Below, piece by piece: positions 311-3,794 of a stretch of DNA of 43,384 nt. The stretch spans positions 1-43,384 of the forward strand of contig JAITDD010000022.1 of assembly GCA_031282725.1 (NCBI GenBank), read 5' to 3'. Below the pieces are notes generated by a model. The model had not been told where the DNA came from. It ran no database searches and saw only the letters and a program-made list of their open reading frames with translations. The translations under genes were made by a program, and so were the position numbers. Origin of the DNA: Mycoplasmataceae bacterium (GTDB lineage Bacteria; Bacillota_I; Bacilli_A; Mycoplasmatales; Mycoplasmoidaceae). Position 1 is the stretch's first letter, and every line of letters begins with the position of its first letter.

Positions 311-1537
311 ATGTCAAAACTAATCAAACGTCCAATCTATATCGATAAAATTAAAAAATTCATTAATGATGACGTAGTTAAAATTCTAATCGGCATTAGA
401 AGAAGCGGAAAATCTGAATTGCTGAAATTAATAATGAATGAAATTTTAAAACTCGCAGATAAACAACATCTAATTTATATTAATTTTGAATCAGCGGATT
501 TTTTTGATATAGATAATTATCAAAAACTATCAAAATGTATCAGTAAATTAATGATTGATGAAAAAAAATATTATATTCTTTTAGATGAAATACAACATGT
601 TGAACATTGAGAAAAAACAATTAATTCGCTAAGATTGAAAAATACCGATATTTATATCACTGGTTCTAATTCAAAGTTATTGTATGGAGAATATGCGGCA
701 TTGCTTTCAGGGAGATATATTTCTTTTGAAATTTCAACTTTGTCATTTAAAGAATTTATAGACTTTAGAAAAGAAAATAATTTCACTACTAAAGATTTTT
801 TAAATGAGTATATCAAAACAGGAGGGTTTCCGTTATTTTCCACAATAGAATATGACGACGAACAAATTGAGATATTACTGAATGATTTACATCGTTCAAT
901 TGTTATTACCGATGTTACTACACAATACAAAATTACGAACACCTCCTTATTAGAACGAATAATATTATTTATCTATAACAACATCGGAAACGTTTTTTCA
1001 GCCAGAAAAATAGCTGATTTTCTATTGAGTAATAATAAAGAAAAAACTAATGTTTCTAAAATTATTGAATATCTAACTTATCTTGAAAACGTGTTTGTTA
1101 TTAAAAAAGTTAAAAGGTACAATATTAATGGGAAAAAAATATTAGAAACTAATTGTAAGTATTATTTATCTGATCATAGTCTACAATATGCGGTTGGAAA
1201 ATTTCAAAAAACGAAACTTCCGGGAATTTTAGAGAATATAGTTTTTAACGAATTGATAAGGAGAGGATATAAAGTGTTTGTGGGAAAACTTAACGAAAGA
1301 GATGACAGGGAAATTGATTTTATTGCTGAGAAAATCGCTAATAATGAAAGAATATATATCCAGGTCTGCAAAGAATTCAATTCACGTGATACTATTAAAC
1401 GAGAATTTGGTGTACTTTCCGAAATAAAAGATAATTTTCCAAAGTACGTTGTTACTACTGATGAATTTTGACAAGAATCAATAGAAGGAGTTAAAAGTAT
1501 TCACTTACATGATTTTTTACTACTTGAAAAATTTTAA
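311..1537 (+). CDS. AAA ATPase of the DUF4143 family
   Basis: A 408-residue protein with TGA as Trp at residues 100 and 387. Walker A GIRRSGKS is at residues 28-35 and Walker B ILLDE at about 89-93, followed by YITGSNSKLL (sensor region). The C-terminal half is the DUF4143 domain, with a PD-(D/E)XK-like pattern (REIDF at about 333-337, then IYIQV). Length and domain order match the family. These ATPases are common accessory genes of unknown cellular role, often near mobile DNA. The gene is intact, unlike the two relics of the family at 7777-8058 and 25163-25619. It starts just after a TATAAT box, with no ribosome binding site. Confidence 0.9.
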
Positions 1538-1735: not shown

Positions 1736-1777
1736 AGGCCATCAAAATCGGAACACACCTTTTTTATATATAATAGG

Positions 1778-2506
1778 TTGAATAATTATTTAAATCCAAA
1801 AAATGATAAATTTGTAACTACCGCAATGTTAAATAAAGAAATATTGCCAGAGGAAAAAAATAAAGTAAATTGTTTTAATTGTTTTATGATTGTTTTTAAT
1901 TATGATGAAAAAGCACAAAACCAAAAATGTTTTAGTTTTTCAAGCCCCAAACCAGATGATAATGGAAACGATTTACGGTATTTCAGATTACCAAATCGAC
2001 AAAAAATAATGTTAAATTCCGTAGTTAATATTTCAACCACTTATCTTTGTGTTGTTGATTTTCCTAAAATGATAGAAAATGAAAAAAATCCCAATGTTAA
2101 GAAAAATTTAGAATTCACTCGTATAAGTTTTAACTTTGCAAATCGGTTTAAAAATGAAATCTTAGAACTATATGGAATTATTAAAAATAATCTTCCGACC
2201 ATAAAGTTTAATAAAAATAATGTTCAATGAGCCCACAAAACAATGATTGACGATAACAAACAAAAAGAATTTTGTAACCGCGAAGTGAAATTAATTAATG
2301 ATTTTCAAAATAAACCTGTATATGATAAAAAACTAAGTCAAAAAGATAATTTAAAAAATGAACTTGAATGAACAAAAATGATAGAAAAACAAAAGAAAGA
2401 ACAATTACTAGCTATTGATTCTCGTATCTTTCATTTGCAACAAACTGCAAAACAATTGGAAGAAAAGATTAAAGGATTAGCGAACTATAGCCAATTAACA
2501 CTGTAG
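1778..2506 (+). CDS. Hypothetical protein upstream of the recombinase
   Basis: An open frame of 242 codons with TGA-encoded Trp at 2228 and 2369. It starts at TTG 1778, right after TATATAATAGG; no ATG is available near the start. The C-terminal 70 residues form a Lys/Glu/Gln-rich coiled coil. The N-terminal part has a partial second copy at 3648-3794. Only about 5 nt separate its TAG stop from the open frame of the tyrosine recombinase, in another phase. The two may have been one fused gene or a translationally coupled pair. No family is recognised. It probably belongs to the same accessory element as the recombinase. Confidence 0.5.
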
Positions 2507-2511
2507 TTTAA

Positions 2512-3414
2512 AATCCTAACGTTAATAAAAAATACACTTATTATTACTATTTATTCAAGAAAAATAAAGATACTTGTTTTACAAGAAAATACAAAAACAA
2601 CATTGAAAATGTGAATAAATTAATTAAAGGTGCTAAATGTAATAACACAGGAACGAAAATTGTATGTGGTTTTAATTGAGCATTTGATTTATTTAATGGG
2701 AAAAAACATAATCATAAACTTATTATTACCCGTCCTAAAGAAATTTCTAAATTCACAACAAGATTAGATTTATCACAAATTCAACAGATTGAAACTAATT
2801 TCCAAAATTGAATAAAAGATGTGAAAAGAATTTTGCTTTGTAAACAAGAAAATACTAAAATAGCACGAGAAAAAATATATCATTGTTTTAAATCATTAAT
2901 AAACTCTGGGATGAGGGTTGGAGAATTGAGTTCGATCGATTTTACATATGAATGTAGTAACAGGATTATTGAGAATCAATTTACTGAAAAAAAAGTGGTA
3001 GAGATTATTATCAACACAGAAAAAACCAAAAAGAAAAGAGAAATTTATATTCCTTATGAAAGCTACGAATTTTTCATTAAACACAAATTGAAACTTAATC
3101 GAGTTATGATTCAATGTGGATTTGATGTATTCAAAAAATGAGCTAAATTTAGTTTTAAATTTACTTCGCATAGTTTAAGAAGAACATTTGCAACAAGTGC
3201 TTATGGATTAGGGATTGAGATTGATTCAATATGTATGAGTTTAGGAAACAGTCATAAAGTTTGCTGTGAACATTACATTTTATCCTCTATGCGAAATTTT
3301 GACACTTTTGAAATTGTTAATGGTTACCACGATGGGAGAATCATTAAAACTGGAAATTTGCATTTGAATAAAAATTATTTAAAGGTTAAAGATAAAACAG
3401 ATAATCTCGGCTAA
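2512..3414 (+). CDS. Tyrosine recombinase, start not evident
   Basis: The frame is open from 2512 to TAA 3412-3414, with three TGA-Trp codons. All catalytic positions of tyrosine recombinases can be seen: Arg in GMRVGEL, a Lys in the beta-hairpin region TEKTKKKREIYI, HSLRR (His and second Arg), GNSHK in the LGHSS-like box, and the nucleophile Tyr in CCEHYI. No ATG precedes the catalytic domain. The first candidate starts are GTG at 2611 or a frameshifted fusion to the ORF ending at 2506, so the N-terminal arm-binding part may be damaged. Mollicute enzymes of this family resolve chromosomes (Xer) or invert surface-gene promoters; which applies here is unknown. Confidence 0.75.
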
Positions 3415-3426
3415 TGCAGATTAAGT

Positions 3427-3460
3427 TTTACAAGACAGTAAAATGATTTTTATATATAAC
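3427..3460 (+). promoter_or_regulatory. Putative promoter of the structured RNA
   Basis: TTTACA at 3427-3432 is a -35-like hexamer, followed after 18-20 nt by TATATATAAC (3451-3460). This would start transcription at about 3464, which is exactly the first paired base of the RNA fold. A similar TTTTTATATATAATAGG occurs before the ORF at 1778. Confidence 0.45.
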
Positions 3461-3463
3461 ATA

Positions 3464-3559
3464 GGTGTACAGTTATTGTATGAGGCGTTAGTAACTTGCC
3501 ATGCTAACTAGTGACACCAGGATGTCCGAGTTACGGTGCTATCTCGCTGATTGCACACC
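3464..3559 (+). ncRNA. Putative structured RNA with a four-way junction
   Basis: The stretch 3481-3540 is 50% G+C (30 of 60 bases by count), about twice its surroundings, and has no sensible reading frame. By hand it folds into one closing stem and three hairpins. P1 pairs 3464-3475 with 3548-3559 (11 pairs, one mismatch). P2 pairs 3487-3493 with 3502-3508. P3 pairs 3513-3516 with 3523-3526. P4 pairs 3527-3530 with 3543-3546. It is not tRNA, tmRNA, RNase P, SRP RNA or any riboswitch I can recognise. It lies 50 bp after the recombinase stop. Function is unknown; it could be a small RNA or a recombination-related DNA structure. Confidence 0.55.
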
Positions 3560-3576
3560 ATCAATGAGTAGTAAAA

Positions 3577-3606
3577 ACGAAATTTTGTAATCGTTCGTAT
3601 ATTTTG
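3577..3606 (+). terminator. Weak terminator-like hairpin after the RNA
   Basis: ACGAA (3577-3581) can pair with TTCGT (3594-3598), and ATATTTTGG follows. The stem is only 5 bp with a 12-nt loop, so this is a poor terminator and only suggests where the RNA could end. Confidence 0.2.
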
Positions 3607-3647
3607 GTTAGATGAAAATAATTCAGAACATTACATAAATAGGCTGA

Positions 3648-3794
3648 AACCCAAAAAATGATAAATTTGTGACTACTGCAATGTGAAATAAAGAAATATT
3701 ACCAGAAGAAAAAAATAAAGTAAATAGTTTTAATCGTTTTATGATTGTTTTTAATTATGACGAAACTAAAACACATCAAAAATGTTTAGCCTAA
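3648..3794 (+). pseudogene. Truncated duplicate of the 1778 ORF
   Basis: These 49 codons repeat the N-terminal part of the ORF at 1778 (its copy is 1793-1939). By manual alignment there are about 17 differences in 140 nt. The frame begins NPKNDKFVTTAM and runs to FMIVFNYDE in both copies. It then diverges and hits TAA at 3792-3794. There is no start codon. The structured RNA lies between the intact element and this fragment, so the layout is partial copy, RNA, recombinase, full copy when read right to left. Confidence 0.75.

What the first reader, a model, noticed from the sequence alone, without database searches (positions are those of the whole stretch)
3464..3559. GC-rich four-way-junction RNA beside a tyrosine recombinase
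The 60 bases from 3481 are 50% G+C in very AT-rich DNA. They have no reading frame and fold by hand into one 11-pair closing stem plus three hairpins. A promoter-like TTTACA/TATATA places the expected start at the first paired base. I recognise no known RNA class. It is flanked by the recombinase and by a broken copy of the recombinase's partner ORF, so it may be part of a small mobile system or an abundant mollicute RNA.
Basis: partly seen in the sequence, partly recalled or inferred. Interest (0 to 1): 0.75.

Follow-up and report, generated by a model that had tools for sequence, protein, structure and literature searches.

The report
Pseudoknot RNA antitoxin of ToxN-like toxin
The GC-rich stretch encodes a real, repeated, pseudoknotted RNA that lies just upstream of toxin genes distantly related to ToxN, so it is most likely the RNA antidote of a toxin-antitoxin system, but in an unusual single-unit form instead of the usual row of short repeats.

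Summary
The feature is real. Six clear copies (plus one decayed) of this ~95-nt element occur in the same genome, built from interchangeable left and right halves. Instead the P4 loop pairs with the 3' end as an H-type pseudoknot that covaries over 13 homologues. The "partner ORF" is a very divergent ToxN/AbiQ-type endoribonuclease (profile-profile score 51 against 12-16 for decoys; SS-x-K active-site motif kept). In relatives a promoter and a structured RNA precede most of these genes, at five loci with a terminator between. Best explanation: a type III-like toxin-antitoxin module with this RNA as antitoxin. Unlike described type III systems, none of 17 loci has tandem antitoxin repeats, whereas 8 of 17 canonical ToxN loci show near-perfect ones in the same test. 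The tyrosine recombinase looks like a local neighbour. In this window the RNA is intact and both toxin copies are damaged. Toxicity and neutralisation are untested.

The parts
3427..3456 (+). promoter-like TTTACA / 18 / TATATA, placing the transcript start at about 3463
   Evidence: read from sequence; stronger -35/-10 pairs (10-11 of 12 matches) at a similar distance in relatives L137, L143, L149, L150, L151
3464..3559 (+). proposed RNA antitoxin, whole element (left arm 3447-3507, shared core 3508-3528, right arm 3529-3564)
   Evidence: 6 copies in the genome with exchanged arms
3487..3508 (+). hairpin P2, GTTAG 3487-3491 with CTAAC 3504-3508
   Evidence: replaced by fully paired different stems GACG/CGTC, GTATATT/AATATAC, GAAGT/ACTTC in other copies
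3513..3526 (+). hairpin P3, GACA/TGTC with conserved loop CCAGGA (CYAGGN)
   Evidence: GACA/TGTC versus TGTG/CACA in relatives; one copy (C23) is weaker
3527..3556 (+). H-type pseudoknot: S1 CGAG 3527-3530 with CTCG 3543-3546; S2 GTGC 3536-3539 with GCAC 3553-3556
   Evidence: 13 homologues, 96.6% of cells paired, 6 of 9 pairs with double changes, 0 of 500 shuffles
3564..3791 (+). decayed ToxN-like gene start (frameshifts and early stops; matches only the first ~74 residues)
   Evidence: tblastn and HMM matches in two frames
1772..2506 (+). second ToxN-like ORF copy, lacking its N-terminal ~17 residues and its RNA leader
   Evidence: 69-76% identical to the C20 copy from residue 18-20 on; no RNA upstream
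2611..3414 (+). tyrosine recombinase (PF00589); neighbour, probably not part of the module
   Evidence: its relatives are not accompanied by the RNA

Best explanation
The element is the RNA antitoxin of a type III-like toxin-antitoxin module of a mollicute. A promoter ends just before it, and the RNA (about 95 nt: hairpins P2 and P3, then an H-type pseudoknot) is the first part of a transcript whose second cistron is a divergent ToxN/AbiQ-type endoribonuclease. By analogy with ToxIN, the toxin would cleave the transcript near the A-rich stretch after the pseudoknot, stay bound to the released RNA and be held inactive; when transcription stops (for example in phage infection) the RNA decays and the toxin is freed. 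Shown here: the RNA structure, its position and orientation, the promoter pattern, the ToxN relationship and the retained active-site motif. Inferred: binding, neutralisation, processing and any defence role. In this window the RNA is intact while the toxin gene next to it is broken, as in a decayed module.
For: (1) ORF1 family against 17 ToxN_toxin (PF13958) proteins: hhalign score 40.8, P 1.7e-5; with two distant members added 51.3, P 3.6e-7, colinear along the protein; 100 column shuffles reach at most 16.3, reversed 13.5, recombinase-family decoys 12-15. The SS-x-K motif aligns with the ToxN active site (Thr52, Ser53, Lys55; PMC8860590). (2) A structured RNA precedes the gene at 17 loci in nine genomes of two genera; three toxin genes of G016 lack this type. 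(3) Pseudoknot covariation: S2 is GTGC/GCAC, GATGC/GCATC, GAGGC/GCCTC, GACAC/GTGTC; 0 of 500 shuffles reach it. (4) Five loci have an intrinsic terminator between RNA and toxin, the type III layout (PMC5086642). (5) RNAs survive where the toxin is decayed or absent (window, C28, C23, G050, G053).
Against: No tandem antitoxin repeats at any of 17 loci, a defining feature of described type III systems (PMC5086642). No terminator between RNA and toxin in the window or in most close copies. No single-sequence Pfam, PADLOC or PDB match to ToxN, so the relation rests on profile-profile comparison. The only structure model allowed (single damaged sequence) is unusable, pLDDT 43. No expression or toxicity data. 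The genome is a 75% complete draft, so toxins at contig ends cannot be judged intact.
Confidence: 0.72

Rival explanations
1. The RNA is a cis-acting leader (autoregulatory operator or riboswitch) that controls translation or attenuation of the ToxN-like gene and is not itself an antitoxin.
For: At many loci the pseudoknot ends 4-24 nt before a start codon, and in class Z a terminator follows, as in attenuators. The absence of repeats fits a leader as well as an antitoxin.
Against: The coded protein belongs to a family whose known upstream RNAs are antitoxins. RNA copies persist without a toxin gene downstream, two at contig C28 and one at C23, which a pure leader would not need.
Confidence: 0.15
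2. The element is the crossover site of the neighbouring tyrosine recombinase: arms are exchanged at the shared 21-bp core, shuffling promoters or cassettes.
For: Three left arms and three right arms are combined around CTAGTGRCACCAGGNNGTCCG, the core holds a short inverted repeat, and the recombinase is adjacent in the window.
Against: Relatives of the recombinase in 17 other genomes are not accompanied by the element, and genomes with the RNA but no recombinase exist (G021, G054). Pseudoknot and hairpin pairs covary across genomes. In G007 the join lies elsewhere (after CACGAG). Ordinary homologous recombination between copies explains the mosaic.
Confidence: 0.06
3. The element is an independent small RNA (trans-acting regulator) that has been duplicated beside toxin genes by chance.
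For: Own promoter; three copies without a toxin gene.
Against: Homologues in nine genomes lie directly 5' of ToxN-like genes, and in two more of their remnants, on the same strand.
Confidence: 0.05

Closest known systems
ToxIN / AbiQ-antiQ (type III toxin-antitoxin; ToxN, PF13958)
   Same: RNA upstream of and co-oriented with a ToxN-family ORF, one promoter, RNA pseudoknot, sometimes a terminator between; active-site SS-x-K kept
   Different: antitoxin is one ~95-nt unit with two or three hairpins plus one pseudoknot, not about 3-6 tandem 34-36-nt repeats (PMC5086642); toxin too divergent for Pfam; several toxin loci per genome (G007 about ten); mosaic antitoxins
CptIN (type III)
   Same: H-type pseudoknot antitoxin of ordinary duplex stems, ToxN-like toxin fold (PMC5086642)
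   Different: CptI is a repeated unit with a one-base loop 1; here loop 1 is 4-5 nt and there are extra 5' hairpins
AbiF with its structured ncRNA (RCd22; Abi_2 family)
   Same: a structured ncRNA 5' of a toxin gene acts as antitoxin by binding the protein (PMC12373285)
   Different: AbiF is an Abi_2/AbiD/F-family protein, not ToxN-like; its RNA carries two abiF motifs (Rfam RF03085), which do not match here

Membership tests
Type III toxin-antitoxin (ToxIN/AbiQ) | toxin of the ToxN family/fold | tested here: met
   profile-profile score 51.3, P 3.6e-7 against decoys 12-16; the fold itself could not be modelled
Type III toxin-antitoxin (ToxIN/AbiQ) | active-site residues (Lys33, Thr52, Ser53, Lys55 in E. 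coli ToxN) | tested here: met
   S/T-S/G-x-K of ORF1 aligns with SSPK of ToxN; S76 and K79 nearly invariant in A5; an R in the RP motif lies in the Lys33 region
Type III toxin-antitoxin (ToxIN/AbiQ) | RNA antitoxin gene upstream on the same strand under one promoter | tested here: met
   17 loci; transcription itself not tested
Type III toxin-antitoxin (ToxIN/AbiQ) | antitoxin folds as a pseudoknot | tested here: met
   covariation for class X; class Z 97% paired but only 4 sequences, weak statistics
Type III toxin-antitoxin (ToxIN/AbiQ) | tandem repeats of the antitoxin unit | tested here: not met
   none at 17 loci; 8 of 17 canonical ToxN loci give 97-100% repeats in the same test
Type III toxin-antitoxin (ToxIN/AbiQ) | Rho-independent terminator between antitoxin and toxin | tested here: inconclusive
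   clear at 5 loci (L138 twice, L139, L141, L151), absent at the window and most others
Type III toxin-antitoxin (ToxIN/AbiQ) | toxicity and neutralisation by the RNA | not testable with these tools
   needs expression in laboratory E. coli
Tyrosine recombinase attachment site | site accompanies the recombinase in relatives | tested here: not met
Known Rfam RNA family | match at gathering score | tested here: not met
   the control shows that Rfam also misses canonical ToxI

The most novel reading that the evidence does not exclude
A new subtype of RNA-protein toxin-antitoxin system in which a single composite RNA (hairpins plus one pseudoknot) replaces the tandem repeats, and in which recombination between paralogous loci swaps the 5' and pseudoknot halves, so that new antitoxin-toxin specificities arise within one small mollicute genome.
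Probability: 0.3. Interest if true: 0.75.

Novelty: new variant of a known kind. Interest (0 to 1): 0.62.

Why it matters
Tandem repeats are treated as a hallmark and search criterion of type III systems (PMC5086642, PMC8860590), so a repeat-less branch would have been missed. It would offer a minimal one-RNA, one-toxin pair to study, a way to ask what the repeats are for, and a defence or addiction module in mollicutes, for which the paper search found no description.

Tried and rejected
Four-way junction with an 11-pair closing stem: not conserved. tRNA/tmRNA: none here. Attachment site of the recombinase: rejected on relatives. HMM search of PDB sequences with the family profile: nothing.

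Full report
OBSERVATION. The stretch 3464-3559 is as described: 50% G+C (3481-3540) against 28% for the window, stops in all six frames, a promoter-like TTTACA/TATATA just upstream. On its own it folds no better than shuffled sequence (z -0.58), so the hand-drawn fold alone proves nothing. The proof that it is a real unit comes from copies. The genome (G000, an unnamed mollicute draft of 876 kb, 75% complete; that its family is Mycoplasmoidaceae is my inference from the genome sizes of its relatives) holds five further copies with E from 1e-38 to 8e-7 and another, decayed one.

MOSAIC COPIES. Aligned, the six copies are combinations of three left arms (A: window, C20b, C23; B: C35; C: C28, C20a) and three right arms (1: window, C35, C28; 2: C20a, C20b; 3: C23) joined at a common core CTAGTGRCACCAGGNNGTCCG, window 3508-3528. 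In relative G007 three copies likewise share the left half and differ in the right half, with the join a little further 3'. This is what recombination between paralogous copies gives.

THE PARTNER ORF. The ORF beside the recombinase has relatives in ten genomes of two genera of the family, this genome included, and in no other genome among 395 sampled across the class. Pfam, PADLOC, PHROGs and PDB sequence searches give no credible match. A profile of the family compared with 17 ToxN_toxin proteins collected by PF13958 from other genomes scores 40.8 (P 1.7e-5); 100 column-shuffled versions reach at most 16.3 and the reversed one 13.5. With two distant family members added the score is 51.3 (P 3.6e-7, probability 93%), while comparisons with the recombinase family as decoy give 12-15. 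The alignment is colinear: the N-terminal Y..YI..L..F, the RP strand, the SSPK motif, the I.IP strand and the long helix. One of the ToxN proteins used aligns to solved ToxN and AbiQ (4ato, 2xd0, 7d8o, 4glk), where Thr52, Ser53 and Lys55 of this motif belong to the active site (PMC8860590). I therefore take the ORF as a remote ToxN/AbiQ-type endoribonuclease.

THE RNA. Upstream of the ORF in relatives (G007 with eight such loci, G013, G014, G021, G022, G001, G052, G054) there is again a structured leader, in several with a near-consensus promoter ending just before it. The most widespread 3' unit reads S1 CGAG - TTATA - S2 GATGC - TAT - S1' CTCG - TTGATC - S2' GCATC, an H-type pseudoknot. Over 13 sequences 96.6% of cells pair, six of nine pairs show double changes (four of five in S2), and none of 500 shuffles nor any slid register comes near. 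In the window S2 is GTGC 3536-3539 with GCAC 3553-3556. Two further classes exist: Y (CCGG-type S2: C23, L135, L137) and Z (GAGTC..GACT crossing GGG..CCC: L138c, L139, L141, L151; 97% paired but too few sequences for statistics). The structure was first seen by eye in these same sequences, so the slid controls flatter it somewhat; the double changes do not depend on that. P2 and P3 are also replaced by different but paired stems in other copies.

HOW IT WORKS. Known type III systems have promoter, antitoxin RNA, terminator, then toxin; the toxin cuts the RNA into pseudoknot units and is held inactive by them (PMC5086642). The present loci show promoter, RNA with pseudoknot, toxin, and at five loci a strong terminator between. 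RNA copies outlive their toxin genes: window, C23 (next gene UPF0154-like by eye), C28 (next gene fmt), G050 and G053. This is what is expected if the toxin is lost first. Binding, processing, toxicity and a defence role are inferred, not shown.

WHERE IT DIFFERS. Described type III antitoxins are tandem repeats, 34-36 nt in the ToxIN family (PMC5086642). In one simple test, 8 of 17 canonical ToxN loci gave 97-100% identical repeats, none of the 17 loci of this family did. A defining feature is thus tested and not met, so I do not file it as a ToxIN member; I call it type III-like, a new variant that probably works the same way.

THE RECOMBINASE. Relatives of the recombinase occur in 17 other genomes, without the RNA next to them; the closest (G004, G016 C49) have nothing of the kind downstream. 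Two genomes have the toxin gene and RNA but no recombinase relative (G021, G054). The adjacency in the window looks local.

LIMITS. Draft genome, contig ends cut several copies; no intact toxin can be proven in G000 (C20b is open to the contig end); no expression data; no usable structure model; literature limited to the open papers held, in which I found no repeat-less type III system and no mollicute case.

Noticed in passing
L010 (G000 C28:20250-20560, minus strand): Two RNA copies in tandem between fmt and valS, one decayed, with no toxin gene.
   Followed up: partly
L147 (G016 C39:16300-18200, minus strand): Two ToxN-like genes preceded by an identical shorter, possibly pseudoknotted leader AACACCAGCGGGTAAGGTGTCTTACACCTAACC; a third (L148) has no evident RNA leader.
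   Followed up: no
L138 (G007 C9:1-3469): Three ToxN-like genes in a row, each with its own RNA leader, of more than one class.
   Followed up: partly
L195, L157, L196 upstream of the ToxN-like ORF: Leaders carry CCTCCTTTC, complementary to a Shine-Dalgarno sequence, in their 5' part; could sequester a ribosome site.
   Followed up: no
window 311-1537 and L007 9047-10399: ATPase genes (AAA/DUF4143-like by eye) beside the RNA loci in both contigs.
   Followed up: no
L174, L178, L179, L186 (same-order genomes): Ordinary PF13958 ToxN genes occur in other genomes of the order; L174 has 43-nt tandem repeats upstream, the other three none by this test.
   Followed up: partly
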